64,000 nucleotides of DNA, from NCBI GenBank assembly GCA_017506865.1, contig JAFCMP010000547.1:248001-312000 (forward strand), given 5' to 3'. Numbering within the stretch: position 1 is the first letter of the stretch; each line of letters starts with the position of its first letter. The translations under genes and the position numbers were made by a program. The DNA is from Tribonema minus (Eukaryota; Sar; Xanthophyceae; Tribonematales; Tribonemataceae). The notes below the pieces were generated by a model. It searched no databases, had not been told where the DNA came from, and worked only from the letters and a program-made list of their open reading frames with translations. This document shows, piece by piece, positions 4,422-59,900 of the stretch.

Positions 4422-7400
4422 CTAGTACTTGAGGAAGCGCACGCCGAGGTAGGCGAGGAACCGCGCAAAGAAGATGTAGAACACCAGGATTCCCGCACAC
4501 GCCCCCATGGTCCTGTAAAGGGGGACAGATGGCAGGTGTGGAGGTGCAAGTGAGCCTTCCTTGTAGTGCGCAGGAGCGAGGGTTACTTTCAAATCCAAAG
4601 TAGAAACATTTTTGAAATATTGCTGCAAAGAGGCAAATGCAAGCTAAGATTGGTGCGGCTGTCATGCACAGAGCGCTTTGTGTGCGTGAAGCAGCAGTGC
4701 GGCGCTCCCTGACTTCCTCCCCACCAAGACACAGGCACATCAAAGCCACCTTTCTGCAACAGCATTTATACAAGTACCCATCAGAAAAGTGATGCCAGAC
4801 AAACGTTCGCCAGCGATGGCTTGACGCAAAAGGTGCCCAACTCAAACCCCCAGAGTCCTCCCAGCTTCGCATCAAACTCTGCAGTGAAGCAGCGATGCCA
4901 GTTCCACTTTCACTCCTGCCTCGTTGATCACTTCATGCAACTATGCATATACTTCAATGCGTACGTCGCTGAGCACTGCTGCCAGCATCAACAGGCGCTC
5001 ACCAGTTCTCCATGCCCTGTGACTCCAGGAAGGCGTTGCCGTTGGGGATGGGGCACTGCCACATCCATCTCCTCTATACACTTCAAAACATACATCACTG
5101 AGCACTGCTGCCAACATCAGCGGGCGCTCACCAGTTCTCCATGCCCTGGGACTCGAGGAAGGCGTCGCCGTTGGGGATGGGGCACTGCGTGATGCCGTTC
5201 ACGTCTATCTCCTCTATAAACTTCAATACGTACATCACTAAACACTGCTGCCAACATCAACAGGCGCTCACCAGTTCTCCATGCCCTGGGACTCGAGGAA
5301 GGCGTCGCCGTTGGGGATGGGGCACTGCGTGATGCCACCCACGTCTATCTCCTCCTCCGGCGTGCACGTCAGCGTCAGCCCGTGATTCTCGTTGAGCGAC
5401 ACGCCGACGTAGCAGTACTTGACGTACTGCGCAGCAGCACAGTGAGGAGCGTCACAGGCGGCAGAAAGAGTTAGCGCGTCGTCGGCGCACGCGCACATGC
5501 ACGCCATGGGGTCTAGAAGTGCCAAAATCGGCCATATGGCTGCGGTATGCCTGTGAGCATGTGGTTCTCGTTCAGCGCGCTGACGTAGCAATTGGCGCAC
5601 TGCGCAGCGCATGTGGTGTAAGAAATGGTCAGTTTGGCCGTGTCACGTGAGCACAAGCCATGTGCGAGAGGCGCAGAGAGTGTCAGTCCGGCGGTGTCGC
5701 AAGGCATGGGTACAATAGCGCCAAAGTCAGCCACGTGATCGTGGTGTGCCTCTGAAGTTGTGGTTCGTGTTGCTGGACAAGCCGATGCAGTACTTGAAGT
5801 AGCACAGGGGGAGCGTCACAGGCGTCACATGTTCCGCCCACCAGCGGGCCGTTGAGCCAGACAACGCACACATTGTACTTGAAAGCCCTCGTAACGATAT
5901 GCAATACGCATTCGCAACGAGATGGGGCAGGTATGTACTTTCTGCAGCAGCGCTCACTGACAGGGCATCGAGCCAGACAAACTACACATTTGCATGCCAC
6001 TACTGCACAGTGCGTATGCGCAACTGGAATGGGGCAGGTATGTACGCTCTGCAGCAGCGCTCACCGACAGCGCGTCGAGCCAGACGAAGTACCCCGGCGT
6101 GTTGGCGGGCGACAGAAAGAAAGCGCCAAACAGGCGGCAGATCTCCAGCATGAATGGCAGAACCGTGACGGACAGGTCCGTGGTGCGGCAGAATGCGGAA
6201 ACCAGCAGCGCGAGCGACGTTGCCGCAAGGGAACACAGGACCATGAAGGCCATGAAGATGAAGCTGCAAGGGGAGGGGGGGGGGGGGGGGGGGGAGAGCG
6301 GGGGGAGACTGGTGAGGAATTGACGATCCATGCGCACTTTTGCTGTAGTGTTGATGCAGATGTAGTGTGCGGTACTGAGGAGCGGCATTTTGGGGAGTGC
6401 AGCTGGTGCAATCGTGCATATGCGTGCACGGTGTGCACGCAGGGTGCAGCGTAGTGACAGACAGGAGCTGCTGGAACCTGCCTGACACAGAGTGACCCTT
6501 CTGACGCGCAACCGTCCATCACAGACATGTGCATATCCTGTACGCAAAGTTCAACCGAGTCAAGTTCAAGTGATGCCACACTGCCAGTGCGAGAGCGCCA
6601 GAGGGCAGTACAGCCCAGGCTGCTAGTGCTGCGGTGCAGACCCCGCGTGAGCCACTTACAACTTGCTGGCTTCGTTCTGCAGGCCAATGAGGAAGTAGAC
6701 GATGCAGGTGAAGAGGATGGGCAGGATGATCTGCATCACGGTCTCCGCCAGCACCTTGGCCATGAAGTACGCCGAAGCTGCAGCACGCAAGCACCGGGCG
6801 ACACTTGGTGAGGGGAGCGCATGCATAGCTGAAGTTCAAAAAGGCGTTGCCGTTGCTCACAACAGACGAGCACACTGTGGTTGAGCAGGTGTAATGGAAC
6901 GGGGGCGTGCACTGCTGACAATGTGGATAAATGTACAGCGGAGCAAGTACAAGTGGGTATATGTCGCAGGTCAGGAGTACCGGCATGTTTTAAAATGCAA
7001 CCAGCATGGGTCAAGAAGCAAATTGCCTGGTGGAGTCCGAGCAAGCAATCACAGGCGAAACGCTGCAGAATGACAGTATGAGCGGTGAGCATTAGTGGGA
7101 AAACGCAATGCAACTCGGCGGCGGCAGCAGGCCGCCACAGGCACCAACAACACAAACATGCCTGCCATCATGTGACAGTGCCTCTACATGATTGAGCAGA
7201 TGGGCAATGCACATGCGTGCGCTATCTACAAGCGGTTTGCCAGCGGGCAATGTGCTGACACGCGGTCGTGCGGGAAATGCAGGCAGCGTACACTATAGGG
7301 GGGTAAGGCGTATAGCGGGGAGTCACAGGCCAACTGGTGCACAACAACATGCAGCAGTGGTGCTCACAACTGAGCAGTACAGTGCTGCTTTAAAAAACTA

Positions 7401-10400
7401 AGCAGGCTGCGATGGAGACAACCCTCATTTTGTAGAATCAACTTCAATCATGAACTTACTGTAGTAGGTGCCCGCAGCGCGCTCCCTGAGCGACAGCATT
7501 CTCTCGCCGGGGAAGCTGTTGATGGTGGACAGGGCACTGAACAGACCCTGTTGCGGCAGAATACAACATGCGCACACGCAGCGATATCATTACATGATTG
7601 GACGTGCACATGCAGCGATACACTTACGTACTTGGATGTACCTCAACGTACACATGTGCACATGTACATGAATCCAGTCATCTGACTGTGGGGAACAACA
7701 GCCCGGCTCTGAGCACACGGAGCATACATGTATGCGTATATGGATGAAAGGTGGTTCTTGCTGCAGTGGCCGTGGAGCGTTGACACTGATGGACTGTAAT
7801 GTAAAGGTCAGCCCCTTACCGCTACGTGAATTCTGTAGCTGACACTAGCCATGGCAGACAAAAACCAGTTGCTTGCTACTAACATCGCAAGCACATGCGA
7901 CCGAGGCACCTGCACCCTGCAAAAAAACAAAGTTCAAATTGTAACTTTCATACCTGATTGATGACGCAGAAGAAGAGCACGGGCTTGCGCAGCGTGACAG
8001 ACTTCTGGTCGGTCCCAATGTCGTAGAATGCAAAGCCGATGAGGATCGCCATAATGCAGACCTGGCAAGACGCAATGACAAAGAGAAGCGCTTTGAAAGG
8101 GGTCCAATAAGGTGGCAGGACTACGGTAGAACAGCAGTAAGACGTATGCTGCGGTGTATCACACCATGTGTACATTGGCTCATGCAAACTGGCACAGCCC
8201 AGCGAAGCGCGCGCTATTATCAGGGCACCATCCTACAGAAACTCAGTTACAAATGAGCTGTTGCCGCGACCAGAGCAAATCACGATAGCAGGGGCCAGCC
8301 TTGCAAAACTGGCGAGGGGCCGGAGTACACATGGTGATGACATGGCCAGATGTCCCTCCCACAACACTGCACGCAGGTGCCACACGCCCTTTCCCCCAGC
8401 ATCACGTTCAGAAATGTGTTGAAGTCAACGTTGAAGTTGCAGCAGCACGCCAAGCACGCGTACGCTTGCCAATCTTTCTAAGCACGCACGGGCCTTTGAG
8501 CACCTCACGCACATGTGATACCGCCACTTGACAGAGCGATGCATGTATGCGCGTGCCGCGCCGCACCACCGACCTGGGTGATTTGCGTGATCATCATGAA
8601 CCGCTTCTGCGTCTGATCCCTGAGCACTTCATACACGTGCAACACCGCCATTTGACAGAGCGATGCATGCACGCGCGCCGCGCCGCATCACAACCTACCT
8701 GGGTGACTTGCGTGATCATCATGAGTGCCACCAACCCGCGCGACTTGCGCGGTCATCATGAACGCCACCCACCTGAGTGATCTGCGTGATCATCATGAAG
8801 CGCTTCCGCGACTGGTCCTTGAGGGAGCGCTCCAGCAGTACGGTGAACTGGTGCCACCACGACGTGGTCTCGCGCTGCTGCAGGCGCGGCTTGTCGACGC
8901 CGTGGTGCAGGTCAAAGTGCGGCCGCGTGAAGCGCAGGTGCAGGTCGTTCTCCACGTCCAGGTCCTGTGGCGCGGGGCAGGCGAGTGAGTATGCGTGCGA
9001 GTCAGAGTCACGGCAGTTGGTTCTGTGAGACGACGCATGAGAGCGGCCGCGTGAAGCGCAGGTGCAGGTCGTTCTCCACGTCCAGGTCCTGTCAGGTGAA
9101 TATTTGTGCGATTCAAAGTCACGAATCAGAGTCAGAGTCATGTGGGTGTGGTGCAGTTGAGTACGCGAGTCAGAGTCACGCATGGAGCGCAGGTGCAGGT
9201 CGTTCTCTAGACGGCGATGGAGTCTATGAGTCGAAGTCACGAGTGTCCGGCCGTGTGAAGCGCAGGTGCAAGCCATTTTCTCCACATCTATGTCGTGGTT
9301 CAGAGTCAAGTGAGGGAGATCCGCATCTGCATGCACAAATCCTGCCGCAGCAGCGGACTGAAACAGGTGGTGCCGCAAACGACGCGTCAATGCAAGTCAG
9401 AGTCAATATGGCGTACAAGCAGGACCTGATGTGCAGCGCACACATAGCGTTGGTACAAATTGGCATGAACAATGACTCATGACTCACCATCAGCGAGTGA
9501 CTCGAGTCGGTGCGCGTCATGGAGATGCTGTCCAGCAGGTGGTCGGCAGGGTTGGTGAGGGGGGCTGCAGAAGACATGAGGGTCACAGCACACAGCAACT
9601 GGTCAGCGACGCGGTGATCCTTGTACACTACATCTGGAGCCTGGCAGAATGCACAAGCACATCAGCTGCTTGCCGCATGTACATGAGGTAGGACAGCGCA
9701 TACGCATAAGATGCTTTCTGTTACACCGACAAACATGACACCCACTGACAGCACCAAACACCAGCAGCATTGATAACATCAACAGCAGTGATTGAGGCAC
9801 ACTGCTACAGCTGCAGCACAAGTACAAGAGAGCACACATGAACCGTATGCTTTCACTATAATGCATCGTGTATACCTGCACTTCCAAGTGCATGGCACTC
9901 ACAACATAGGTATGAACGGACGCGCACGCCTTGTGCGCCAGCCCTCGGCCACACTGCACAATCGATACATACATACACGAGCATATACTTTGAGGTATAT
10001 ATTCTTCTACACGCCAGCGCCCCGCGCGCGCGGCCCATGACCACACAGACCCTGTGCATACATTCAGCAATACTGCTACATACATAGAAGTGTCTGTATG
10101 TATGGCACTCACGGCATGGGTAGCCCGTCTGCTCGAAGAACGCGAGCGCCTCGCGTGCAGGCCCTGGTACGCTGCACCATCGATACATACATACATGACC
10201 ATACATGTACCTAAAAATATATACTCTATACGAGCACCTCGAGGGGCCGTGTCATACATTCGGCAATACCGCATCTATTTATTTATGAGTTTATGTAGTG
10301 CACTCACGGCATGGGTAGCCCGAGGGTCGAAGAACGCGAGCGCCTCGCGCGCGGGCCCCTGGTACGCTGCACCTTGGACAAATACACAACCATACATGAC

Positions 10401-13400
10401 TTCAAGTCGGTCCTGCTGAGGGAGTATATACTTCAAAGTATATGTATATGGCACTCACGGCATGGGTAGCCCGTCTGCTCGAAGAACGCGAGCGCCTCGC
10501 GCGCGGGCCCCTGGTATGCAATGTCGCCCGCCTTGAGGAGGATGAGGTTGTCAAAGAGGCTGTAGATCTTGCTCTGCGGCTGGTGGATCGTGCACACGAC
10601 GGTGCACGTCTCGCTGATCTCGCGCAGGATGTTGCACAGCATGAGCGCCGTCACCGAGTCCAGCCCGGACGTGGGCTCGTCTGCGATACATACGGTAACA
10701 GACACAGTAGTATGCACAGAAGTCATCAGCCGGGCGCAAGTGTAGTCCACATGATCACTGGTGAAGCAAGCGGTGTTCCGATCGATGCGCGGTCGACAGG
10801 TATGGAGAGACGCACGGCATGAGGACTGTCACATTGTGCAATTATGACGCGGTTGCATAGCATGAGCGCTGTCACCGAGTCGAGGCCGGACGTGGGCTCG
10901 TCTGCGATACATACCAATAGGCAACAGAAATGCACATAGAAAGTCAGCCCAGGCGCAAGTGCAGACTGCTACTCGCCGCTGACGCAATAGGTGTTGAATC
11001 AAAACGTGGACGGCGAGTGCGGAGAGATGCACAGCATGAGCGCTGTCACATTGTAAAATCATGACTGCGTAATGGCAAAATACGCGCACACACTCGTATA
11101 AGTTCTGACGCAGGAGGCACGGTGCGGCAGTGATTAAGTTGCAAAGCCTGCACCAGAAGACTTTGGTATATTGTAGAAGTAAAGCTGATGCGCTCGCCCT
11201 AGCAGCGTATGCAAAACGCTTGCAAGAATGTGCAGAGCAGGAATTCAGGATGCTGGTTCCACTACATCGTGACGAAGTTGGTGCTAGCACCGGTTGAGCC
11301 AGTGTTGCAATGCGGCGCACAGACGCACTGCTTTGCAGATATGGCGATGTCAAGATCTGTCAAAGGATATGGCACCATAACACCATTGCATAGCACCCTG
11401 AGAAGCCACCAACACCATGGACCAAAATCATGTCACCCCTGATACACCAAAGCCTACAGCCTTGTAGTTGAAGAGTCTACGCATGTGGCAGAGAGTTACC
11501 CAATCGCGTCATGATTCAGCAATCTCACAACATCGCTCTTCTGGCACGTGAACTACGCTTGCTGACAATGTCTTTGATATTAACCAGATCGTGATGTTTA
11601 CAACGTCTCGATGTTTAAAATAGGTCTTCTGGATGACTGCCACGCGCCGCTGTCATCAAAACTTTAAGCTGCGCATTGTGCGCACGCACTGAGTTCTGCA
11701 GAGGCAAGCTTGCCGGTGCAGGCGTTGCTGACCATCCAATTAGCAGACGTGAATGCAACAAGAGATCGAACGACTTAACCACTGCTGGCAAGTGACCATG
11801 CAGTCCTGGCTAGTGCACGTTTTCTCAAGCACTACTCAGGACAAACCCCAGTCTACCCCTAAACCTAACCCTAGCCCTAAGCTCACCCAGGAACAGCAGC
11901 TTGGGCTCCACCAGCAGCTCCAACCCCACACTCAGGCGCTTCCTCTCGCCGCCAGATATTCCCTTCCGCAGCGGCGTGCCTACGATGGTGTGCCTCGCAT
12001 GCTCAAGGCCCATCTGCTGCAGCACTCTGTCCACGCGCACCTGCACAAACCACAGTATGTAGACCACACGCACACAGCACCAGTTTGTGAATACAGGAGA
12101 AAACCCTTGGCAGCATGGCCGCGGCGGTGTCACCATGAAGGTGTGAAGCATGTGCATTCCCAACTGCAAGTGGCGGCGAAGTGCACACACTGTTGTATCG
12201 GAGTACTGGACGACCACGATTCTGCATGACGACACTGCAAGGTGCAGTGAAGCGCGATGAAGTTCTGCGGTTGTTGCAAACCTCAACATCAATCGTCAAG
12301 AGTTCAACTTCAATGACCGCCAGTTCTCAACACGCTTCAAACAGCGACAAGGTTTGCACTCTGTGCCGCATGACGCTGCACATTCCGTGACCTGTACCCG
12401 GTGGACAGTAATTGTACTCAGCTGCCCATGCAGGCCAGGGCACACCATCATAAGAAGTTGTGCGCCATTTGTCAATGTCACACTATCAACTGAAGATGGG
12501 CGCAGGGCAGGACTATTGCCATTTGCCGATAGAGGGCACATCACCAACACATGGCAACCATGCACGTGGGTGCTCGAGCAGGGAATGAGCAAATGTGCAC
12601 TGACATCAGCTGCGGTTGTGCTGACGCTGCTACCTGCACGACTGTGCTGGTGCCGCAGCTACTAAACCCTGCTTGATTATGTCATCAAGCACTGATAAAA
12701 CCATATCCTGAAGTCCCGTAATGCACCATCATCAAACCACCCTACGGCTGTATCCATTGGCAACAGCGCATGTGTGCGCGCAAAAATCGAGGTGCGGCAA
12801 TGAAATCCTGACCAGACCAAGCTGCAGACGCGACCTCCCCTATTCAACTGCCGAGCAGCATTGTGCATACGCGCAGATGGACACTGTGCCATTTGTTCAA
12901 CGCGGATGGCGTACCTTGCGCATGGCGTCGGTCTTGTCTTGAGGGCAGCGCAGGCGTGCGGTGTAGTCGAGCGTCTCCTCACAGGTCAGGTTACCGTTGA
13001 GCAGGTCGTCTTGCATCACGTAGCCTGACATTCTCTTGAGCTCGGCTGTGGGGCGCAGCAGCGGGAAAATGTGCACATGCGTGCCAGGTGAGTGCTGCGA
13101 CCTTGTGTCTTTGTTCTGTCCACCAGGCACCAAAGTGCAGTGAGGGGAGTTGGAGTGAACCAACTTGTTGCAAATGAGTCGTTAGAGCGACACGTGGCAA
13201 GAATCGGAGCAACTAGCTACTAGCAGGTCCACAGGTCTGGTACATGGCCGCACTGATGAGGTATGCAGATGATTGAGGGGGCACCGCAGTTCTGAACATA
13301 ACTCTGCAGAACAGTGCTTAGCACTGGCACAACAACGCCAATTGAAGCACGGGCTTTGCCACGACAACTCGCAAGTGCATGCATCCCCAAGGTCACCGCG

Positions 13401-14209: not shown

Positions 14210-14452
14210 GGTGATTGGCGAGCAGCGACGCTGCGAAGATGCGAAGACTACCTTACCAACGAGATTTCAAGCTCCCTTGACTGTGCTCTGTGTGCTGTTG
14301 TACCTCGTGAGCTGGAGAGCAGGCACAAACGGGCGAAGAAGTGAGTTGTTTTGGCTTCTAAGGTCTGTGGTGGCCTAGGAAGAGCAGACAGGAGGCAATT
14401 TTGTGTGCAATGCTGCTATTTGCTCCACTGCCTCCTGCTAGTACCTGCTCTG

Positions 14453-17852: not shown

Positions 17853-17868
17853 AACAAGCACTTCATAT

Positions 17869-19778: not shown

Positions 19779-22700
19779 TTAGTCGAGGAGGGTGGTCTGG
19801 ATGATCATGCCAGTTACCACGTAGGGGTCCATGTTGGAGGCGGGGCGCCTGTCCTCAAAGTACCCGCACCCCTCCTCCTCCACCTGCGCAGGTTAGCATA
19901 CATGGGAGTGCAAGCAGTGGTGAGCGCTGCTGGCCATAAACAAACTTGTCACCTCGAGCTCTACGATCTACTTATTCGTTGCCGTAAACAAAGTGCAAGC
20001 GGAGGCGAGCGCTGTGGAAGGGCCATTTGCGGAAAGCTTCGTTCGGTGATGGTTTGACGTCAGGTATCTCTGGTACGTTCAACTTCATGATAGTATTTCA
20101 AGAAGAACAAAACGGTTTAATGTACCGATTCCCTGGAACCAGGTTCGCAGGAAGCTGCAGCACCATGCAAACAGGTGCAACTGATAACTTCAGTAGAACA
20201 CAAATGCCTCTAAGGGCAACAGGAAGCTGCAGGACCATGCAAACACATACCCTTGAGTCCTTATAAGTAGAAGTATGTTTATGGATGCCTCCAAGGGCAA
20301 CAACCATGCCAATGAAATGTGGTCACCGATTACTCCTGCAGCTGTCCTCCAGTGTGTGTGGCCACAAGTGACACCGTGAGCAATAAAGCAAATAAATACA
20401 GTTTGCAGAATTGTCACGAGGGCCTACTGCACAGGCACCACCAGTGCAAGTGGAACCTGTGCAAACTGTGCATGCATTCGCTACCTAAGCAGCAGCCAGC
20501 ACCTCAAACGCTGAGTGACAGCAAATGATGACAACCTGGCGGCCATTTCGCACTCTCCCACTCAAACACTGAATGCTCTGCAGCGTCAAATCAACTACTT
20601 TACTAACACCTCACAGGTGATGTCAAGTGGAGCCCAAGTCAGTTGCTACTACGACTTGCATACTTCGAAGCACATTCTTTGTCGACGAGAGCACAGACAC
20701 CTCAAGATTGAGCTCTTCAAAACAAAAGTTATCTTTCTACTTTCACCAAGCCGGCGATGCACACGCTCGCTCGATCATGCCGACTTGCTGCCAGCGTCTA
20801 CATGTGATAATTTGGTCATGCAGTCAAGGGGAGCGTCACCACCACCGAGAAGATGGAGCCCCGCGCATGCTCACGCACCAAACAAAAACAACCAACTGCC
20901 AATGTCCTGCAGCATCAAAGCAACTGCAACGACTGACGTGCCGCTCATGTTGAAGTCGTCGGAAGACAACATGCACGCAGTCGCTGTGACAAGGAATGCC
21001 GCCGCCTTACAGATTACCGTGAGCACTGCTACGCGTTTTACTTCTGCCGGACAACGGCGGAACTGCGGAGGCAAAAATGCAGCTGCACGCCCCAAGCGCC
21101 AGAAATAGGGTCCCCGTTAGGGTTAGAGGTTAGAGTCAGGTTCAAAAGTGCAACGCCCATTTGGGCAGCAACAAGACAATTCTGTGTGATTTTTTGTTTA
21201 CCTGGCGGCCAATGCGGATGCTCGCACCGCGGTTCGCCACGCCGTATGAGAACTGCGAGATGGACGCAGTCTCGTGCCTGCCAGTGAGGCGCCTCTCGTT
21301 GCCCTCACCGTACGCCTTGATGTGCTGCATTGAGAAAATGAGTGTGTGGGGTGCAAGGCACAAGGTGAGCATCGCTAGGGGCTTGACTGCCAGGCGCAAA
21401 GCAACGTGAAGTTGGTGAACTTCAACACGGGTGATGATGTTATATCTCGTTGCCCTCCCCGTATGCCTTGATGTGCTGCACGTTTTTCTTGTTCAAGTGG
21501 GAAAGTGAGAGAGGGGTGCGAGGCGCGAGGTGAGCATCAACTGCCAGGCGCAAAGCAACATGAAGTGCTTCCGCGCGATGGTTAACTTCAACAGCAGTAA
21601 TGATGATGTGTCTCATTGCCCTCGCCATAAGTGGGAAAGTGAGAGAGGGGTGCGAGGCGCGAGGTGAGCATCAACTGCCAGGCGCAAAGCAACATGAAGT
21701 GCTTCCGCGCGATGGTTAACTTCAACAGCAGTAATGATGATGTGTCTCATTGCCCTCGCCATACGCCTTGATGTGCTGCAGTGAGAGAGTGTGAGTAGGG
21801 TGCAGGGCATGCGATGAGCATCGTTGCACTGTACCAGGGGCTTGACTGTCAAGCCGCAGGGCAGCGTGAAGTGCGCATTGAGTGGTGGTGAACTTCAGCA
21901 CTCATTGCCCTCGTTGTACGCCCTGTGATATGCTGCACAAATTTTGTTTTTCAAGTGGGAAAGTGAGAGAGGGGTGCAAGGTGCGAGGTCAGCATCGCTA
22001 GGGGCTTGACTGCTTCTGTGTGATGGTGAACTTCAACAGGGGTGGTGATGATATGTCTCGTTGCCCTCCCCGTATGCCTTGATGAGCTGCACAAATGTTG
22101 TTTTTCGAGTGGGAAAGTGAGAGCGGAGGTGCAAGGCGCGAGGTGAGCATCGCTAGAGGCTTGATTGCCAGTCGCAAAGCAACATGAAGTGCTTCTGCTT
22201 CTGCATGATGGTGAACTTCAACACGGGTGATGATGATATGTCTCGTTGCCCTCGCGGCACGCCTTGATGTGCTGCACAGATTTTGTTTGGTAGGAAAGTG
22301 AGCGTGGGGTGCAAGGCACACGGTGAGCATCGCTGCAGTGTACCAGGGGGCTTGACTGCCAAGCCGCAAAGCATTGTGAACTGCGCTTCTGAGTTATGGT
22401 GGACTTCAACAGCTTTCTTGGCCAGCTTTCTTAATGGCCTCAGTGATCTTGGCGTAAGCCGCCGGGGTTTGCGCATGAACTTCAACAATGTGCAAAACTT
22501 CAACAAGTGACACTCCCCACGGAACGCGCCCACCCCCAGCACCACCGCCCTCACCTGCTCGTGCTTCTTGGCCAGCTTCTCAATGGCCTTAATGATCTTG
22601 GCGTAGCCCCCGGGATTGCGCATGGGCTCCGTGTAACTTCAACACTTGCAAAACCTCAACAATTGCACAAATTCAATCAGCGGCACCACCAACGGACCGC

Positions 22701-25700
22701 GCTCCCCCAGCAACGAGCGTAATAGAACCCGGTGAGGCTGGCTCATTTTGCAGGTCTTGCGCTCTCACCTGCTCGTGCTTCTTGCCCAGCTTCTCAATCG
22801 CCTCGATGATCTTGGCGTAGCCCCCGGGGTTGCGCATGGGCTCCGTGGAGTAGTTGGTGTGGCAGCCCGCGCCGTTCCAATCCCCGGGGATGGGCTTGGG
22901 GTCGAGCGAGACGATGACGCCAAACAGCTCGCACACGCGCTGGAGCAGGTAGCGCGACACCCAGAGGTCATCGCCGGCCGTGATGCCGACGCACGGGCCC
23001 ACCTGTGTTTATAGGGCATGGACACATGACACACGAAGCATGTTTGTGTCATGTTACGCAGATTTTGAGTGAGTGCACATGCACTCGAAGGGACATGTAC
23101 TGTAGCGCGAGAACAAGAGGGTGTCGCCGGCCGTGATGCCGACGCACGGGCCCACCAGTGTTGAGAGTGCATGGACACGCGTGACGTCAGTGACGTTCAC
23201 GCTGGGCGGCGTGGTCCTCTTCAAGTCCTCTGCGGCAGCAGTGCTCAATGCAGGGGTACATATTTGCAGCAGCGCTCAGACCCTGCAGCAGCAGCGCTCA
23301 CTTGGTATTTCCACTGGCCGGGCACGACCTTGCCATTAGTACCTGAGCAGTGTAAATCCTCTGCTGCAACAGCGCTCAACAGTTACATATCTGCAGCAAC
23401 GCTCAAAACCCTGCAGCAGCGCTCACCCACCTGGTACTCCCACTGGCCGGGCATGACCTCGCCGTTGGTGCCAGAGATCTTGACACCCGCGAAGAGGCAC
23501 GCCTTGTAGTGCGCCTCCATGATGTGGCGGCCAAACGCGTTCTCCTTGCCAATGGCGCAGTAGTAGGGGCCCTGGGGGCCGGGGTACCCCCCCTTGGGCC
23601 AGCCGAAGGGGGTCACGCCATCCGCCTCAAACAGGGTGTACCTGCGCGTGTGCAAAACCAGTGCAGCAGCCGCATAGGGTTAGCAGGTGGCGAGTTGCAC
23701 AAACGAGTGGTCTGCGGTCAATTGCGGGTGATGCGGTGCCCGCCTTGCTGCCAAAAGCTGCAGCCAAAACGCCTCTCCCTGCTGCACCCATCAATCACAG
23801 AATACAAACTCGTGGCCACAGAGATGGTATTGTAGAGGTGCGGCATTCGCGCGCCAACATGGTAAGCCGTGGCACTGCAATCACTCCTGCTGGATGTCAG
23901 ACCACTAGTCTAGCACACAATTGCGCACTGACAAGTTCCTGGCATCATTGCCAGAACTCTGGCCAGTTGCTGCGCAACGCGTGCCCATTCATTGCAAGCA
24001 CTTGACGATCGCATCATGCAATGACTAAAGCGGCGTTCATGCACCGCAAGAGACTTGTGTTTTGCGCACGTTCTAAAACGGCATGACATCCACTGCTTCT
24101 CGATGACGGACTATGAGTGCACAAAGGTAAACAAGTGCTTAGGCTTCTTGTAATCAAGCAACTTCAAAAGCGGCACTCACGCGCACGACACTCACTCCTG
24201 CTCCATGCTTAATCACCTTTCAGCAGCTGCATAATTCATGATTGCAAGGACTTCAACTGTTCCATCTTCATGCCAGGATGGGCGCAGCAGTTTACTGCAC
24301 AGCTGGACCTGCCTACCCTTGCCCTAGCGCCCATTTGCCACACCAAACATGCAGCGCACACACTCCTGCTCACCGCAGGAAGTGCTCGCACACATGTGCA
24401 GGCACTTCTCAGCCACCTTGTTGCCAAATCCTACACCAATGCAGCGCACACGCTCCCGCTCTACGCAGAACTCCTCGCACACAAGCGCACTGCAGAGGCT
24501 TCGTCAGTCGCCATGCAACTTCAACATCAACTTCAACAGCGCCGCGCGGCACTCACTCCTGCTCGATGCCGAACCACGGGATCTCCTTCTCCGCCTCCTG
24601 GCACGCCTTGGCGCACGCGAGGCGCGTGTTGTTGTCAATGGGCGTCCCGTCCGGCTTGTAACAGTCGCACAGCGCCATGATGTTGTCACCCCCGCGGAAT
24701 GGGTCGGCGTACACGGCCTGCGGGTAGATGATCACCTCAGAGTCGTCGCCCGGGGCCTGGCCGGTGGAGGACCCGTCAAAGTTCCACTTCGGCCTGCATG
24801 AAGTTGAAGTTTGAAAATGACAGCGCAGGGTCAGCAGATGATCAGGTTGGGGCCGGTAGGGCGTTGGTGGTGCGTCTGTCTCTAGAAGGAAACGGGTTTC
24901 ACTTGTGGGGGTAAATTGCGGTGCAAATTGATGTGAAGGGAGGGTCCGGCTTGGTGGATGCACTACCTCAGCTTGTGTGATGATGCAAGGTACTTCAGCG
25001 TGCATGCAGCTCCCTCAGGGTTGAGCACAACAGGTAGCAGCTACCACTATACTTGCAGGTCCTCCCACAAGTCTAGACCTGCTGGCAAGCATTGCTGGCA
25101 CAGCCGCTGCCGCCGCCGCAACAGGACCTTCTTCGCTGCCTGGCCTCAGACTGAAACCAGCAAGCACCAAGGTCGAGATGCAGATGTATGTAGGCATGGG
25201 CTCATACTTTTCTCAAGTCGCCAGGGGTAGTGCATTTGCCATCGTCATTGGCTTACGGGAGGCTTCACAGCAAATTAGTGCTGAGATGTAGGATGTACTA
25301 CACTGGCATTCGTAGTGATGGTGAAAATGAGCATCTTCACAAGGTCAGAGCATAGGGTTTACACTACAGCCTGGGTGCAGGAAATGGCAACTAGAGAACT
25401 CATGTGCGCCCGCTTTGTGAATCCTCCAAAGAACATAGTGGCGTGCATGGTAGGCAGCATGGCGCAACTTGCAGAAGATGAGCACTTCCTACAACTGTGT
25501 GGGGTCAGCACTAGCCCCAAAACATCTGACAGCAGCACGTGCTGTCAGATGTCAGCAGCATGCGCACACTGAATGCGTGCGCAAACAAGTCTCTGAGGCA
25601 AATCAATTGAGTCAGTTGGGAGTGGTCAGCAAGGCTGTACATGCACGTGTACCGCTGCAAAATGAAATCGCCAAATGCCACAAATACACGTCAGCAGCAA

Positions 25701-36400: not shown

Positions 36401-39400
36401 AGCGTCACGTGTTCTTGAGTTTGAGGTGATCATGACGTGTGCCTTGAAGTATAGAGAAGTGAGTATGTGACGGCGGCCGCCCAACACGTGAGCGGGCGCT
36501 GCACAGACCAGTAGTCGGGCGCATAGCCTAATGCGCGCAGGGGGTGGGGAGCGAAGTGCGACAACGTGAAGTTTCGAGGTGATTGCGACGAGCGCAGTGC
36601 GGGTGGTGCTGACGTGTGTGCATTGAAGTACAGTGAAGTGTGGCTCCTGGAAAGCCCGAGCTGCTGGCACGCGCTTTGAAGTCTAGCGATGTGTCTGCCC
36701 CGCATGGCCGTGACCCAGAACTGCTGAGCATCACTGGTTGAGGCTGCAGTTGCTGGCGTAGCTGGTGCACACAGAGCAGCAGCACAGGTTGACACTGGGC
36801 TTGAGAAGGCAAGATGGTGGCGGCAGAAGCAGTGGCGTTCAACTGTTACAGCAAGTTGCTGGCATCATTGAGAGTCTTGCCTCATGCCAGCCTCCCGGAT
36901 GATACAGCGATGATACAGCGGTGCTAGTACCAGTCGTTGAATGAGACGTGACCGCCGTCAGCCCCCCCTGCGCGCCGCACGCACACATTGAGCGCTGACG
37001 CGCCCCTTCCTAACCCTAGCCCTAGCCCCACAGCCAGTCAAGGCGCGCTGCGCAGAGAGCTCGCGCGCCGTGATGAACTGTGACTTCGGCAGTGCCTTTG
37101 CGGTTGGCCGCGCATCGAACCCGACAGATTCTACTTCACTACAGTACTGCTGCCCTGAACAACTCAATCAGTCCGGACTTTAATCAGCCAAGTCCAACAG
37201 ATTCTGTATAGATTCGGTGCCCTTGTCACCTTGCTGCTGTCTGCGCATCAAACCCGACAGATTCTGTACAGATTCTGTGCCCTGAGGTCCCAACAGGCGC
37301 GTCATTAATCAGCGCACCTTTTTGGCGCGCGACCATGAGTCTTCGGGGGCTGATGCAGCCCAGTGCGAGAGCCATGCCAAAGGCCCTGGTGAAGACCTCC
37401 CCCGGCGCTAGGCCGCCGACCCCCCTGCGCACACAGGAGGCGAAATGGCGGTATCAGCGCCGGGGAGTGTGTCAGTGTACTTTGCAAAGTGTGAAGGGAG
37501 ACTTTGTGCTGAAGCCTTGCACCCACAGCACATGCTGTCACAAGCCTGTGCTGTCGGCGTATGTACTTCAATGTGAAGTGTGCTGGTTGAAACACTGCAG
37601 ACGTGCCACTCCTGCTACAAGGCAACAGAGAGCTCAAACAGATGCGTGGCGCGTAAGTGCCGTGCATCAGCGGTACAAGTGACGTGCTAGCGCACGCGCT
37701 TTGTGAAGGACAGACCTAACCCTAACCCTAAGGTAGCACCACCACAGATGTCTGGCGGGTGCCGCCAGGCGTAAGTGCCTTGTGTAAGTGCTACGAGTGA
37801 CGGTGGAAGCATCGGCACGCGCAGTGTGAAGGACAGACCGGTTGTGAGCACGTTGCTGACGTGCGTCGGCGGCACAAGCGACGTGCTAGCATCAGCACGC
37901 GCTTTGTGAAAGACAGAGTGGGTTTGATCGCGTAACTGATCCGTCAGGCTGCATGCCCTGGTACTGAGAAGTGCACGGAAATGGACCATGGTTTTAACCA
38001 CACAGCTTTGGCTCGCTGTGCCCTACGCGGAACACCTGCATGCTGAGCACTGCCACTCATGCATTACAGCATACCTACCCAGTGGCACAGCACCGCTCGG
38101 CAGCTTCATCTGGAGCCTTGGCTCATGGTGTGGCTTTGAGCAGTACACCTATTGCCACCGCCTAAACCCTCTGCAATGCATGCTACTGCTTCTGGTCAGA
38201 CAGTAAAGGCAGACAATGAGGTCGACCTTTGCAGTTGTCTTGCAAGGACTCGAGGTTAACAGCACAATTAAAATGCTCATCAGGGCATGCCTGTGCATAA
38301 TGAAACACGATCACGGCTTCTATGCAGCAGTTACAAACAGTTACATACACGCAGCAGCTGCAGCGCGGCATTCATGGCCTGCTGCTCTCGATTGCTGTCA
38401 TCCTGCGCGCACTTGGCGGCTTGCGCATGACAGTCACCAATGAGCACCTACTTGGCAGCGACAAGACGCATCGCGACTGTGCTGTAGACATTACTTCTTT
38501 ATATGACGATTTGCAAATGGCGATGACCCACCAGCACCTACTTGCTTGGCAACAATAGCGCACCTGCGTCTGCTCTGCACACGCCCGCCTTCAAATTGCA
38601 ATTGTCGCAAATCATGATCTGGTTTCCGACTTGTCGCAAATCATGATCTGGTTTCCGACTTTGCCAATACTGACCAGCACCTACTTGGCAGCAATGAGAC
38701 ACGTACTAGGGTTAGGGTTCAGGTCAAGCATTGACCCTACCCGTTACCTGAGAAGAGCTGCAGACACGTCTGCGCAACGTTTTGAACCTAACTCTTCAAC
38801 ATTCCTAAAAGCACTTACTTTGCGGCGACAATGCGCTTAACAGCGGCGCTCTCCAGCCCCGGCCGCGCCAGCACCCCCCCCTCCTGCGCCCCCTCCTGCG
38901 TACCCAACTTCAACTCCTCCCTGAAGAGCTCCTGCCCAAACGCAAGCTCTCCCTCCATGACATAGCGATCCAGCATCGCCAGCGCGGAGCTCTCGCCGAA
39001 GCCGGGGCGGCACAGGGTGTGCGTGCCGAATGACGGCGGCGCATCCCGCAGCGCCGCACCCAGGGGCCCTTGGCAGGCGCTGTCAAATGAGGAACAGAGG
39101 GGGCGCGTCACTTCTTGAAGTCGAAACGAATGATAAGTGGTGGTGTATATGAGGGCCGAATGACAACGGCGCATCTCGCAGCGCCCTTTGCGCTGGTAGT
39201 GGAGGGAACACAACTGGGGATGTCACTTCTTGCAGTTGACTAAAAGCGGATAATGTTAACTTGTAAACCGAAGTGGGACAGTAAGGCACAGTGGGTTCTG
39301 CAGGGGATTTGATTGTTGTTTGTCGACCGAAAACTTGAGGAGTGATTTTGCGGCAAGACAGTTGTCTATCGCCAGCGTGCACCCGGTCTCACATAGTGAC

Positions 39401-40488
39401 AATGGCGACCAGCCTGGCGACTAGCGGGTCCCCCCAGAGCAGGGTCACCTGCGCCGCTTTCACATAGCACACGAGACTCTGTATCTATGTCTCATGTTTA
39501 CGGCTAACGCCTTCACACCTCTTTATGACATGTCAACCCTGGCAGTACACTTCATGCCGATGCAGCATTCACCTCAACGCAAGACGCAGACTCCCGGTAA
39601 GGGGCAGCGCTAAGTTAGGCGCGCAACCTCGCCCTTTCACGCCAATGTCAACTCGCACCCGCATGCCTACCTACACCAACTGCCACCCGCAGCTTCAACT
39701 ACAACTCCCCCCACACACCGACCTGGCCAGCACCTCCTCTATGCGCGGCATCCACCGACTTCCACCACAACTTCAACTACAACCCCCACCCCCCCACACC
39801 CACCTTGCCAGCACCTCCTCTATACCCGGCATCTCCCCCGCCGCCACCCCCACCAGCAACCCCCCCAGCGCCCGCCGCAGCGGCGCCGTTCACTTCGTGC
39901 CGATGCAACATCCACCTCAACACAAGACGCCGACCCCCGGTTACAATTACGGTTAGGGTCAGGCACGCCACCTCGCCCGCTCACGCCAACACCAGCTGGC
40001 ACCCGCATGCCCAACATCAACTTGCGCCCACAACTTCAATTTCAACTTCAACTCACCTGGCCAGCACCTCCTCTATGCGCGGCATCTCCCCCGCCGCCAC
40101 CCCCTCCGGCAGCTCCCCCAGCGCGCCCCGCAGCGGCGTCGCCGCCGGCGCGCACAGCGGCAGATCCCGCGTCGCCGCGTCGAAATTCTCGTAGCTCCAG
40201 AACAGGTCGTCGGGCACGGGGTGCTCGCCGCGCAGCCGCATGCGCCACGTGTTCAACTTCAACTCTGGAAGTGCGGCGCCGAGCGCGCGCCGCACCGCCG
40301 CCGCCTCCGCGCGCAGCGCCGCCGCCGGGGAGTCGCAGTGGGAGATGGCGGCAGCGGCGGCGGCGGCAGCGACGGCGGGCACATGCTCTGCGGAGGTGCC
40401 GATGCGCACGACGAGGTCGCTGCCGAGGGCGCGCAGGCTCGACTTCAAGTCCGCGACGGCGTAGTACAGGTGCGCGGCCTGTGTGTGC

Positions 40489-40519
<31 letters not shown>

Positions 40520-50987: not shown

Positions 50988-53900
50988 ATGAAGACACATG
51001 TGAGAGCTGTCTTCTGCTCCGCTGCGCTGCTGCTGAATCGCGCCGCCCACGCCAACGCGACCGGCGGTGGCAGCAGCAGCAACTGGCTGTTCTCACTGCC
51101 TCCGAGGGACCCTGCCCTGTACGATGAGCTGGGAGTATCGCCCACTGCTAGCAAGAACGAGATCAGACGGGTGCGTGACTGGTGGCTTTATGATCTGATT
51201 GTTCGTCACCAGCGAGGTGCCTTCTGTCTTATGGCACTATGCTCGCTCGCAACTGGGTTCCTGAAAGTGCCAGTTGGGATGTCTCGCTGACACTGTGTTG
51301 GCCCTGATGCTGACTGATGTTAATTTCTGCTGCAGGCTTACTTGAAACTAGCGGTCTCATGTCATCCCGACAAGGCGGGCGCAGACGAGGTAAGCCAAAA
51401 TGAGCATTGTCGCAACACGCTCCACGTGGCCGAAATGTCGGATGAAGTGGCTTGTGGAGTATTTCCTGCAATTCTGCTTCACTGCAGATTGTACGCTTCA
51501 ATGAGATGTCTTCTGCTCACATTTTTGTTGCTGACGGTAGAGGACCATTGAAGTTTAGCTGCGTCACCGGTCGACCGCACGCTGCTCTCTTTCCCAGCTC
51601 ATTACTTACTTCATTCCATGATCTTTGCATGTATGATTTCAAAGGCGTCGGAGCAATCACGCAATGAAATTAGGCCTTTCTGACAAACCTGACACTGAGT
51701 GTGCCTTGACTGCTGAGCCATTCCAAAACTCCAATCCTGTGACTGTCGCCAAACTGAATGAGCTTTGAATGCCAAATCAGTAGTCGGCACCACACTGACC
51801 TTCACTATGTCTCCATCGCTCACGCCATTGACCTACAGGATCGGTTTAAGCGTGTGGCAGAGGCGTACCAGGTGCTGCAGGACGATGCCGCGCGGGCCGC
51901 ATATCACACATACGGGCTGGAGCAAACCAGCGATATGGATCCTCATGGTGAGACAATCCAACCATTTTCATGAAATCTTGCAGGCACAGCTGTGCCCAGA
52001 GCTAGGGACTCTAGCAGGACTAGGGAACGCCGTTTTCTTGCGGGCACGAACTCGTTCACACACGGAATCAACGCTTATGTCAGTTGTCGATTGCTGGCTG
52101 CCATCAGGCGTCGACGCAAACTTAGCATCCTTGATGAGGTGCTTGCTGTCAGTTGTCAGACGGAGGACTGTTTTGCACGTAATGTGAAGCATATGCCAAT
52201 GGAATGCCGGCGTGAGCCACTGATGCCAAGGCAGGGAGCGCGTTGTGGCAGTCATGCTGCTGCATTGGTCATGGCGATTTGCATGAATTCAGCTTCCGGT
52301 CAGGGTGCGGGTTAGAGTTGTGCAGCCACAGGGCTGCTCATGAGCAGAACTTTGTGTCCTAAGTTGCTGGGCCTTTGATAGTGGGTTCTGTAGGACGCAT
52401 CGCATTTTGCGAAGCAGTGTTGTTGTGAGTCTGCGCACATGGCTCAGCTTGCGCGCCAGTTCAAGGAGCTGGACTTGCGGCGCGTGCGCTGCATTGATAT
52501 AATGAGCATTGAATCACAGCGAACCCGTGGTTCTTCAGATAACTGTTGCCGTTCCGGGGAGGTGCTGATCTGCCACTGTTCCTATACCCTCACCCCTACC
52601 CCCCCCCCCCCCCCCCCCCCGGCAGATCACTACAGGTTTGGGCCCCTCGGGCCCGTGTTGGACCCCCACGAGGTGTTCCGACTCTACGTCGGCGGCGGAA
52701 AGTTCCAGCAAATCATCGGCGATCTGGCGCCGAAAAACGCGGACCTGCCCGCAGAGGACGGCGCGCACGGCGACTGGGACGTCTATGCCCCTTCGGCGAG
52801 CCCTTCACGCTCAAAGGGCAGTGTGGAGGCGCAGCGCGACGCGCGGGCGCGGCAGTTGGCGGAAGCGCTCCTGGCGAAGCTGGAGGTGTACGTGGGGGGG
52901 GACGTGGGGGGGTTCGAGCGCGCGGCGTGGGCGGAGGCGCTGGCGCTGCGGCCCGAGGTGCGTCATCCGTTGAAGTTGCATTTGTACTTCTACTCTCTCG
53001 CCATTTGTGCGTCATGAGCTTTGTGGACCCATGGGGCGCGAATGAGCGCGCGGTGTGGGCGGCCCGAGGTCCGTTGTCCGTTGAAGTTGCACTTGAAGTT
53101 TTACACTTTAGTCATGTTCGCGCCGTGAGGTCTGTAGGCGCACTAAGAGCACATGAGCTTGCAGCATGGGCAGAGCTGCTGGCGTTGCGGCCCAATGTGC
53201 GTTGCCGTTGAAGTTGGCCTTGAACTTGTATATTGGTCGCATCATGCGCTTTGTAGGCCTATGAGGCTCTCTTTGGAGGTAAATGTCCAACAGTACTCTC
53301 AGGCGTACTCAACTCATGAGGGAGGAAAATGTTGCACCAGGTTCTAAAAGGCAATGCAGTTGCGCAGAATAGCGCTACAGTAGGGACTCTGGCAGCAGCA
53401 CCTTTTTGGATTGTAGCAGTGGCAACAACAACAGCAGTACGACAGCAGCAGTGTGGACCAGCACTTCTTGGCAGCAGCAGCAGCAGCATCAGAGCCTGCA
53501 GCAGTGTGACCACAGTGCTCAGCCACTGGTGTGACCACAGTGCTCAGCCGCTGCCATACAGCAGCTGCCACTGCTGTGCGGCAGCTGCTGCTGCTGCTGC
53601 TGCTGCTGCTGAGGGCTGCTGGCCCTGCTGAATCAGAGAAGTGAGAAATGCGCAATGAACATCTGAAGTAGTACGCGAGGCTTGGCTTCGCATCGCTCCT
53701 AAGCAGTGTCCGGATGGCGATCTGTATGTAAGGGGATAGCGGTGTGAACTGGAATCAGGTGTCCCAAGCACAATACATTCGTATGGATGCGTGTATACTG
53801 ACGTGTCCAATGAGTTAATCCTTAATTCTTGCCGTTCCATGCGCGCGGAAATGCAAATCACACATTGGGTTTGGTCGCGACTGGCTTACACTAGTGTGAA

Positions 53901-56900: not shown

Positions 56901-59900
56901 GAAGAGGGGGGGCGCCCGCGGGGGCTCTGCCCCCCAAACCGGTTCCGCAACGCCCACAGCCGGCGATGCAGAGGACGTGGCCATGATTGGCAGTGCCCTG
57001 TGGAAGGTCCACAGGTCAGCTCGTATGCATTGCAACAATAGCATTGGCATGTTTCAGTGCTGTGCTTAACGGTGGTCAGAAGTAGGGTTGGGGTTAGGGT
57101 TAGGGCTAGCTGACCCCCAGACCGGTTTCGCGAAGCCCACCGCCGGCGATGCAGAGGACGTCGCCATGATTGGCAGCGCTCTGTGGAAGGTCCACGGGTC
57201 AGTTTGCATGCATGTTGGCTAGGTCAAAGCGTATTTTTGAAGTTTATTTCTGAGTCCCCCGTTTGTGGTGGACTGCATGCTCGGAATCGAGCACACTCAC
57301 CACATGCGCCACAAATACGCCCTTTACGCAGCATGGTATATGTTGAGGTTTGCTCAAGACGTATTCTTGATTGCTAGATACGTCCCAAATACGCCATATG
57401 TGTGTGGCCAAGTACGTTTTCGTGCAAACCTGATGTTGACAGATGCACAGTAGTGGCATGCTGCTGAGATGGAGGTACTGCGTTCTGAAGTGCACAGGGC
57501 TGTCGCTACACAATCCCGAGGTGCTCAATACAGATGACCACATGTTGTCTTCAGGGAGCCTCCGCAACTTTGGCACGTTCCCTCGACTCTTGCGAGTACC
57601 CCTGTTTCAATTTCAACTTGTGTAGCAGTGCTCGTCGGTCCCATGCGAATCACCTCTCAGACAGCCTGCATTCACGCGTTGGGTGTAGCAGCACACATAC
57701 CAGCCGTTGCTGGCATGCCAGCTGCAAGTCCAGTTATGATTGTCAACTCAACGTCAACAATCCTAACTGCAAGCGCCGTCACCACCTTACTACGCCTGCC
57801 ATTTGCGCCACACCGCGAACCTGCGTGTCCTCTGCGCATACTCGAATTTCCTCAATCTTTGAAGTAAATTGCTCACTTGCGGGTCAACCCAGGGCCACCT
57901 CGCGCACTTCATAGCATTTCATGTCAGCGTGGGTCGCAGCTGCCTGATTAACAAAAGTCTTTTTGGCTAAAGTGGATATGGTGGTACTGTTTGACTCGTG
58001 GCCAATTGCTGCAGCAGCGGCGACCACGGTTCTTGATGGAAGGCACTTGCGGCTCACCATCCCTTGTCACTTAGAGAGCTCTACAATCTTTTGATTCGTT
58101 CTCATTAACCTGAACTTACTGATCCGCGTTGACTGCAACATGGGCTGCAACGCCATGACATGCTGCAGATTATCAGTACAGGGGCGCTCAAGCCTCTCGC
58201 ATACAAAAGTTAAAGTGTGTTTTCAGGCGCGATGCACGTGCCGGGGCGCCACCTCGCATACTTCTTCAAGTGTTGCTCTTCAGCGCGCAACTCAACTTCA
58301 ACAACCTCAACACACACACCGTGTCATCTCAACCATGCCATGACGCACTGCAGATTATCAGTAGAGGGGCGCGTGCGCCGCGCTTGTAAGCTGGCGCTGC
58401 GCGACGAGAGGGTGCCCCTGGAGGTGCGGAGGCTGCGGGCTGAAGCACTGGTGAGCACTGCTGCTGTTTGTTGGGCGCTGCTGTGTGCTGGATCTGACCT
58501 CAATGCAAAGTTGTCTTGTGCATGTGCACTTGAAAACAGATACACCATTGATATGAACAGCACACAACCCTGGTAGAGGTGCGGAGGCTGCGGGCAGAAG
58601 CACAGGTGAGCGCTGCTGCTGTTTGGCGGGCGATGCTGCCGTCTGCTAACTTCAACACAGAAATTCACTGCACACGTGCAATCTCAAACGGCGCAGACAG
58701 TGTAACGTGCGCAGCCACTGCAACATCAACAACACCCACCCTGATGGAGGTGCGGACGCTTCGTGCAGCGCTGCTGGTGCGGGGCACTAATACCAGCACC
58801 TGCCGTCCTGTCAGCGCATACGTCATCCTGGCCCAACAGTGGACAAGGCTTTGGGCTACTTTAGCTTGACCAGTGCATGTGCACAGTACTGCGCATAATT
58901 TATTAAAATATAAACTGGAGGTAGTCGTAACCCCACATTCAGGACGCGTGAATCCGAACAATCACTGTGGGGACACACCACACATCAATATTCACCATGT
59001 TGCCCTGCACCCATGAGTGTGTATCAGAGTGTTTACTGAGGGGTAGGTACGGGTATGCAACCTGACCTGCAAGACAGCAGCACTCTTTTCTTCATCCCGG
59101 TTATTCTGTTTCCAACACAAGCAATGGGGTCGTTGTGGGCACATGTCAGTGCAGCATGGCTCAACTGCAAAGCTAGCTACTGAATCAAGGCATTGTGTTG
59201 CTGGTAGTTTGGCCATGTCAAGTGTCATGTCAGAGTAGCTGCGCAGTGCGGCAAAGTGGCATTAGGGTCAGGGACAGGGTTAGGGTTCGTGCTCACTAGA
59301 TCATCAATTCTCACTGCCAAAGGTAGACGTGCAGGTGGCCTGCAGCAGCAGAAGAGCGTCGCCGATCGCATGCAGTGTGAGCGCTGCATTGTTGAGCACT
59401 CGCAACGTGTCTTTCAGATATGCTCATGCAATATGTACATGTTCCGTTTCTTGATGCACGACCACCTTCTCTCATGCATGCACAGCTGCACGCTAGGAAC
59501 GCAATACTTGTACTTTTTATCAATTCTCGCTCAGGGCGCGAAAAAGCCCAGATGATTGGCATCTAGCTGTAAGGAATCTACATGTCGTATGACAGTACAT
59601 CAACTCCGGTGGGCACGATAACACAGAATTATTGCACTTATGTGTCTAGTCGCCCCATTGCTGCAAATGTATATGGCACTTCATGCATTTGAATGGCGTG
59701 CTAAGCCCTTCTACAGCCAACCTGACTCTGCAATATCGTCGCTTTGCGTGCAGGTACGACTCGGGGAGATCTACAGCAGCTGCGCCAGGGGTGGCCAGCC
59801 AGTACATACACATCCACCTGCCACAGACTTTCCATTTACATATGCAGACCCAATCGATGGCGCGCATGGGCCACAGCCGCCAGCAGATTGGTCAGAACCA

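What the first reader, a model, noticed from the sequence alone, without database searches (positions are those of the whole stretch)
4985..58780. Exon-end echo arrays: tandem partial copies of exon edges and splice sites inside neighbouring introns
In at least four genes (ABCG, glutamine synthetase, photolyase-hydrolase, DnaJ) the last or first 20-90 bases of exons, together with the splice site and some intron, are repeated one to six times outward into the intron. Copies usually decay with distance. Some exons (ABCG 5, 7 and 12; GS exon 5; hydrolase exons 4, 6 and 9; DnaJ exon 8) have echoes on both sides. Copies never include a whole exon. This would lengthen introns and fill them with decoy splice sites. 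It resembles the published tandem-duplication model of intron gain, but here the arrays appear to be ongoing and gene-wide.
Basis: seen in the sequence. Interest (0 to 1): 0.9.

Follow-up and report, generated by a model that had tools for sequence, protein, structure and literature searches.

The report
Duplicated exon ends inside algal introns
In the yellow-green alga Tribonema minus, short tandem duplications have repeatedly copied the edge of an exon with its splice site into the next intron, where the copies decay as decoys; they form a readable record of how introns grow and can mislead gene prediction.

Summary
The window is Tribonema minus nuclear DNA. The echoes are real: in 13 modelled genes (four here, nine elsewhere in the genome) 49 of 196 exon-intron junctions have copies in the adjoining intron, 97 in all; controls gave 0 of 196 on the reverse strand and 0 of 196 in another gene's introns. 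Copies take a median 49 nt of exon, at most 62% of it, and repeat about every 150 bp. GT/AG is intact in 37 of the 39 copies that span the site, yet none of four transcript-derived ABCG proteins is joined at an echo, while the public ABCG model has three exons on echoes. Copies decay like neutral DNA and mostly arose separately in ABCG paralogs. Best explanation: frequent 100-250 bp tandem duplications, tolerated when they straddle one exon end because the original site is still used. How far exon ends are targeted is open: raw odds are about sevenfold over uniform placement, but with exons masked 19 of 46 arrays abut a junction against 27% expected, p = 0.026. No new intron was seen to arise this way.

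The parts
4978..5191 (-). Two donor-side echoes of ABCG exon 12 (5426-5272): 5107-5191 (83/85) and 4978-5059 (78/82); tandem unit about 140 bp
5272..5426 (-). ABCG exon 12 (source of donor and acceptor echoes)
   Evidence: splice alignment of transcript-derived proteins
5553..5608 (-). Acceptor-side echo of ABCG exon 12 (48/56)
5933..5985 (-). Donor-side echo of ABCG exon 11 (6263-6065), 46/53
8566..8724 (-). Two donor-side echoes of ABCG exon 7 (8964-8773): 8693-8724 (28/32), 8566-8624 (51/59)
9040..9297 (-). Three acceptor-side echoes of ABCG exon 7: 9040-9092 (52/53), 9179-9207 (27/29), 9245-9297 (42/51); the first overlaps an exon (9088-9035) of the public protein P0001 that the transcript-derived proteins lack
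10088..10364 (-). Two donor-side echoes of ABCG exon 5 (10680-10459): 10288-10364 (72/77), 10088-10169 (76/80); both overlap exons of P0001 (10366-10308, 10149-10113)
10852..10914 (-). Acceptor-side echo of ABCG exon 5 (59/63)
21445..22276 (-). Four acceptor-side echoes of glutamine synthetase exon 6 (21324-21202), inside an array that also holds a 134-bp identical tandem pair (21495-21763)
22415..22614 (-). Two donor-side echoes of GS exon 5 (23002-22769): 22546-22614 (64/69), 22415-22466 (44/50)
23102..23178 (-). Acceptor-side echo of GS exon 5 (67/77)
23280..23347 (-). Donor-side echo of GS exon 4 (23641-23431), 55/68
24182..24216 (-). Weak donor-side echo of GS exon 3 (24793-24557), 35 bp, 83%; below the score cut
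32061..32139 (-). Donor-side echo of photolyase-hydrolase exon 9 (32512-32292), 71/77
32674..32964 (-). Three acceptor-side echoes of hydrolase exon 9
35505..35813 (-). Three donor-side echoes of hydrolase exon 6 (36233-35870)
36331..36544 (-). Two acceptor-side echoes of hydrolase exon 6
39155..39185 (-). Acceptor-side echo of hydrolase exon 4 (39079-38819), 28/31
39721..39858 (-). Two donor-side echoes of hydrolase exon 3 (40478-40057)
53059..53216 (+). Two donor-side echoes of DnaJ exon 4 (52626-52957)
57138..57213 (+). Donor-side echo of DnaJ exon 7 (56865-57014), 68/76
58152..58187 (+). Acceptor-side echo of DnaJ exon 8 (58362-58450), 32/36
58576..58625 (+). Donor-side echo of DnaJ exon 8, 47/50 (a weaker further copy at 58725-58768)

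Best explanation
Tribonema minus keeps making head-to-tail tandem duplications of about 100-250 bp in its genes. When the duplicated piece straddles a single exon-intron boundary the gene keeps working: the exon keeps its own splice site, and the extra copy (exon edge, splice site, adjoining intron) becomes part of the intron. Repetition builds arrays, lengthens introns and adds decoy splice sites; the copies then decay as neutral DNA. Duplications inside an exon, or of a whole exon, would change the protein and were not seen in six models. Shown: the arrays, their geometry, their neutral decay, their separate origin in paralogs at most shared junctions and, for ABCG, that transcript-derived proteins are not joined at echoes. 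Inferred: the mutational route (for example repair of staggered breaks by fill-in and end joining, or replication slippage) and the selection step. Likely but not settled: a moderate extra bias of duplication towards exon ends.
For: 49 of 196 junctions echoed, in 10 of 13 genes; controls 0 of 196 (reverse complement) and 0 of 196 (one 1.3-kb stretch of another gene per junction); successive spacing median 148, 10-90% 104-255. Of 57 exon-touching pairs in six models 53 reach the facing exon end, 0 contain a whole exon, 0 are exonic on both sides. Differences by codon position .073/.059/.138 and 26 of 27 exonic-part indels not multiples of three: echo unconstrained, exon constrained. At three junctions shared by ABCG paralogs each echo is most like its own exon end (81-98%; 65-87% to the others), with two near-ties. 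None of P0002, P0003, P0004, P0006 is joined at an echo. Tandem duplication is a known outcome of repairing breaks with protruding ends (passages of PMC5730883).
Against: No duplication was caught in the act; no reads, population or sister-species DNA were available. About a third of boundaries between copies in the first 11 genes have an AACTTCAA-type motif nearby (27 of 79) and some, by eye, telomere-like stretches, which plain duplication does not explain. Uniform duplication alone predicts 24% exon-anchored arrays (39% with a twofold visibility advantage) where 42 of 61 were seen, so the simplest version is incomplete. Three of 13 genes have no echo at the cut used.
Confidence: 0.75

Rival explanations
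1. Exon ends are targeted: something at exon-intron boundaries (transcription-linked breaks, the GC step, nucleosome edges, splicing-linked structures) makes duplication several-fold likelier there.
For: 42 of 61 arrays in eight genes are exon-anchored against 24% expected under uniform placement (p 3e-13), 39% with a twofold visibility bonus (p 3e-6), 49% with threefold (p 0.0015); in the four genes outside the window 22 of 36. Successive spacing peaks near 150 bp with none under 60, though that search could hardly see units under about 40 nt. Exon 11's donor was duplicated separately in three paralogs.
Against: With exons masked, 19 of 46 arrays abut a junction against 27% expected, p 0.026. 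Among arrays of at least 90% identity the excess is weak: 12 of 19, p 0.03 at twofold and 0.16 at threefold; outside the window 8 of 14. Array boundaries are my clustering choice, and arrays are not independent.
Confidence: 0.3
2. Echoes are functional, for instance as alternative exons, alternative splice sites or regulatory decoys kept by selection.
For: GT/AG intact in 37 of the 39 echoes (of 75) that span the site by 6 nt; the public ABCG model has three exons on echoes.
Against: 26 of 27 indels in the exonic part break frame and first and second codon positions diverge; about 34 of 39 intact dinucleotides are expected from neutral divergence alone (my estimate rates); none of four transcript-derived ABCG proteins is joined at one.
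Confidence: 0.06
3. A mobile element or introner-like insertion with long target-site duplications made the copies, with the AACTTCAA-rich stretches as its remains.
For: Motif within 45 nt of 27 of 79 inter-copy boundaries against 341 of 3950 control positions in the first 11 genes.
Against: Not replicated in two further genes (2 of 22 against 212 of 5234, p 0.22); the CCT3 exon 6 array, read by eye, shows none at its boundaries; no shared inserted sequence was noticed, though none was sought systematically.
Confidence: 0.08
4. Assembly artefact (collapsed haplotypes or misjoined repeats).
For: Tandem arrays are a common place for assembly errors; no reads were available here.
Against: The window's contig is 1.86 Mb long; copies show graded, codon-position-structured divergence in unlinked genes, which misassembly would not be expected to produce.
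Confidence: 0.03

Closest known systems
Intron gain by tandem duplication of exonic sequence with a proto-splice site
   Same: Tandem duplication inside a gene that includes splice-site sequence; one copy becomes intronic (Drosophila cases, PMC2891723, abstract and passages shown; potato RdRp case, PMC4974935, listing and start of abstract)
   Different: Here the duplicated piece straddles an EXISTING exon-intron border, so no intron is created and an old intron grows; it is found on a quarter of the junctions sampled.
Tandem duplication by repair of staggered breaks
   Same: Head-to-tail direct repeats, possible repeated rounds, sometimes with inserts (PMC5730883, passages shown; Schiml et al. 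2016 seen only as cited there)
   Different: The mechanism is not shown here; the engineered protrusion in that study was 46 nt, units here are about 150 bp.
Tandem exon duplication / mutually exclusive exons (recalled)
   Same: Exon sequence repeated in a neighbouring intron
   Different: No whole exon, frame not kept, not in the ABCG transcript-derived proteins.
Introner elements (recalled)
   Same: Introns filled with repeated sequence carrying splice sites
   Different: Copies are local and gene-specific as far as sampled, not a dispersed family.

Membership tests
Tandem-duplication intron gain | Tandem duplication including splice-site sequence | tested here: met
Tandem-duplication intron gain | A new intron arises between two exonic copies | tested here: not met
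   0 of 103 repeat pairs in six models have both copies exonic; the search looked only beside known junctions and so is no test of this
Tandem-duplication intron gain | Intron present in one relative and absent in another, with exon-like ends | tested here: inconclusive
   GS intron 3 is absent from the paralog, whose exon is 448 = 237+211 nt; its ends do not look like exon copies by eye, although it holds a weak echo of exon 3; no statistic run
Introner elements | Similar copies dispersed in introns of many genes | tested here: not met
   0 of 196 junction queries hit one 1.3-kb stretch of another gene each (a small sample); 2 of 96 window ABCG donor queries hit stretches of the paralog on C53, where homologous echoes are expected
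Tandem exon duplication / alternative exons | Whole exon duplicated with frame kept | tested here: not met
   0 of 57 exon-touching pairs contain a whole exon; 26 of 27 indels break frame
Tandem exon duplication / alternative exons | Use in mature transcripts | tested here: not met
   ABCG only: four transcript-derived proteins; other genes not tested
Repair-type tandem duplication | Head-to-tail direct copies, no inverted copies | tested here: met
   reverse-complement control 0 of 196; inverted repeats near zero
Repair-type tandem duplication | Junction microhomology or filler in fresh events | not tested
   junctions are diverged; needs strain comparison

The most novel reading that the evidence does not exclude
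Exon-intron boundaries are themselves hotspots of a nucleosome-sized tandem-duplication process in this lineage, so that introns grow outward from their exons and splice-site arrays are continually renewed, giving raw material for shifts of intron position.
Probability: 0.28. Interest if true: 0.8.

Novelty: new variant of a known kind. Interest (0 to 1): 0.6.

Why it matters
How introns lengthen and acquire competing splice sites is usually inferred from old, blurred sequence. Here a quarter of sampled junctions carry recent, datable duplications of the splice site itself, a natural experiment on how the spliceosome tells a true site from nearby near-copies and on the rate of intron growth. 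It also warns that gene models in this genome can contain false exons made of echoes, as seen in ABCG.

Tried and rejected
AACTTCAA as a universal breakpoint mark: associated in the first 11 genes, not replicated in the two ABCG paralogs, so not claimed. The genome-wide pattern count (746 + 735) has no useful control, because the reversed pattern belongs to the same microsatellite. Base composition as predictor of echoes: no clear trend by eye. A sliding BLAST profile timed out and was replaced by an ungapped scan. Controls that are not clean negatives: exon-interior windows 13 of 125, which overlap long echoes, and intron windows at least 300 nt from exons 111 of 834, searched on both sides and mixing echo-to-echo matches with true intron-only arrays. 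In one search intron positions 90-330 nt out show 10-17% (the copies themselves), and farther positions mostly 6-17%, up to 24% in small bins. Window ABCG donor queries hit 2 of 96 intron stretches of the paralog on C53.

Rows dropped before counting: micro-exons placed by the aligner in the hydrolase, DnaJ and CCT_L022 models, and junctions of partial CCT models judged uncertain (CCT_L023 donor 3573 and acceptor 4365; ends of incomplete segments in CCT_L025 and CCT_L026). Two hydrolase junction positions were corrected by one base. Echo counts depend on the cut: 33 of 142 junctions, 38 of 142, 37 of 142. The PF00118 search pointed to about ten genes; six were fetched, before their repeats were seen.
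Full report
Source. The window is G000:C544:248001-312000 in an assembly of 158,181,000 bases and 554 contigs. Its ABCG protein matches P0001, named Tribonema minus, on a contig of the same length, 1,859,316. Four records named only as TRINITY transcripts in EukProt (P0002, P0003, P0004 and the shorter P0006), 99% identical over the part they cover, serve as transcript evidence; their species and strain are not stated in the output.

Gene models. ABCG (13 exons), glutamine synthetase (7), a photolyase-hydrolase fusion (11) and a DnaJ-like gene (8 modelled) were placed in the window by splice-aware alignment, together with a GS paralog on C41 (6 exons), CCT3 (9 exons; 100% identical to the public protein P0121) and five partial CCT genes. 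Two ABCG paralogs on C53 and C56 were added later. The hydrolase, DnaJ, GS and partial CCT templates were assembled by me from reading frames, so their exon ends are less certain than those of ABCG and CCT3. Aligner micro-exons and uncertain junctions were dropped as listed under Tried and rejected.

The echoes are real and not by chance. An ungapped scan over 142 junctions shows local direct repeats at 12-20% of positions in the 60 exon bases next to a junction and 3-4% at 60-150 bases into the exon; intron positions 90-330 nt out, where the copies lie, show 10-17%, and inverted repeats are near zero. Of 103 repeat pairs in six models, 57 touch an exon in one copy; 53 of these reach the exon end that faces the copy (35 of 37 with the echo downstream, 18 of 20 with it upstream), none contains a whole exon and none is exonic on both sides. 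Circular shifts gave a mean of 14.8 and a maximum of 39 in 2000. With gapped alignments 49 of 196 junctions in 13 genes have echoes (97 copies), against 0 of 196 on the reverse complement and 0 of 196 in a stretch of another gene. Outside the window the figure is 28 of 125 junctions in nine genes, six of which have at least one echo; GSpar, CCT_L022 and CCT_L026 have none at this cut.

Geometry. The exonic part has a median of 49 nt, a maximum of 135 nt and at most 62% of its exon (79 records). Successive copies are 148 bp apart (median; 10-90% 104-255), none under 60, though units under about 40 nt would hardly be seen by that search.

Decay. On the exonic part the nearest copy is more identical than the farthest in 16 of 20 multi-copy arrays, although the pooled correlation is weak and whole-alignment identity shows the opposite, 8 against 14. 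Differences between echo and exon fall at .073.059 and .138 per site in codon positions 1, 2 and 3, and 26 of 27 indels in the exonic part are not multiples of three (75 echoes). That is what a freely decaying echo facing a protein-constrained exon should show: about 6-7% change in the echo plus about as much silent change in the exon (inference). GT/AG is intact in 37 of the 39 echoes that span the site by 6 nt, close to the roughly 34 expected from neutral divergence (my estimate).

Separate origin. Three ABCG paralogs (76-82% identical in coding sequence) have echoes on 7 of 24, 10 of 28 and 2 of 26 junctions. At the three junctions where at least two of them have echoes, each echo resembles its own exon most; exon 11's donor was clearly duplicated separately in all three. 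For the C53 acceptor echoes of exon 5 the own-exon lead over C56 is small (0.85 against 0.85, 0.81 against 0.79), so an origin before the C53-C56 split is not excluded there. The GS paralog, 82-89% like the window's exons, has no echo, only a 152-bp intron-internal tandem pair.

Splicing. P0002 and P0003 align with the 13 modelled exons; P0006 begins inside intron 4 and P0004 stops just inside intron 12; none is joined at an echo. The public model P0001 has three additional exons, 10366-10308, 10149-10113 and 9088-9035, each overlapping an echo. Exon definition would explain why acceptor echoes, which come first in the transcript, are passed over: they have no donor behind them (inference; not tested).

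Is the exon end targeted? In eight models 42 arrays are anchored on an exon and 19 lie wholly in introns (outside the window 22 and 14), against 24% anchored under uniform placement of viable duplications. For arrays of at least 90% identity the excess is weaker, 12 against 7 (outside the window 8 against 6). A test free of exon conservation, with exons masked, gives 19 of 46 arrays abutting a junction against 27% expected, p 0.026, though several of the 27 others look like inner parts of exon-anchored arrays. I conclude that ordinary tandem duplication plus selection and visibility explains most of the pattern, and that a moderate mutational preference for exon ends is likely but unproven.

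Comparison with what is known. Tandem duplication as a source of new introns is in print (PMC2891723, abstract and passages; PMC4974935, listing and start of abstract), as is tandem duplication from breaks with protruding ends (PMC5730883, passages). I found no description of genome-wide arrays of duplicated exon-intron boundaries in the listings of eight full-text searches; the library mostly lacks subscription journals, and no Tribonema genome paper was among the listed results.

Noticed in passing
window 21418-22640, 35716-40260, 52970-53210 and elsewhere; L018 1-3065: The motif AACTTCAA/TTGAAGTT occurs 48-49 times in the 64-kb window where about 2 would be expected (my estimate), 43 of 67 times as TTGAAGTT in gene sense over the 11 gene spans, and 29 times in the 3 kb of L018, which looks like a satellite array; AACTTCAACTTCAAC occurs 1,481 times in the genome. 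It is enriched near echo boundaries in 11 genes but not in two further ones.
   Followed up: partly
window 11860-11885, 33934-33967, 35189-35223, 57083-57106 and others: Short telomere-like TTAGGG/CCCTAA tracts lie inside introns, one directly after the ABCG exon 4 donor and one between DnaJ exon 7 and its echo (read by eye); possibly marks of break repair.
   Followed up: no
window 24556-23642; C41:367675-368122 (L007, L008 joined): GS intron 3 (915 bp) is precisely absent from the GS paralog, whose exon is 448 = 237+211 nt: a clean intron gain or loss.
   Followed up: partly
window 13536-12915; C53 (L029) and C56 (L027, L028): ABCG intron 2 sits 19 nt further upstream in the window gene (exons 102/131) than in both paralogs (121/112), and both paralogs have an intron within the window's exon 5 (181+41 against 222): intron positions are moving.
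   Followed up: no
window 29886, 33997, 38602, 41607, 53504, 61374: Six two-copy tandem duplications of 19-29 bp with 95-100% matches lie in introns or between genes, none at a modelled exon end: a separate, shorter class.
   Followed up: no
window 1322-2240, 14442-15100, 17230-18310, 62892-63313, 63440-63572: Repeated element-like sequence, in tandem and dispersed copies, part of it around TCGCGCCCTGAGCGAGAATTAATAAAAAGTACA.
   Followed up: no
window 30446-41803: The photolyase-hydrolase fusion gene found 12 relatives at E <= 1e-60 among 8000 scored candidates, several from brown algae and their relatives, but no record named Tribonema; the public annotation may have split or missed it.
   Followed up: no
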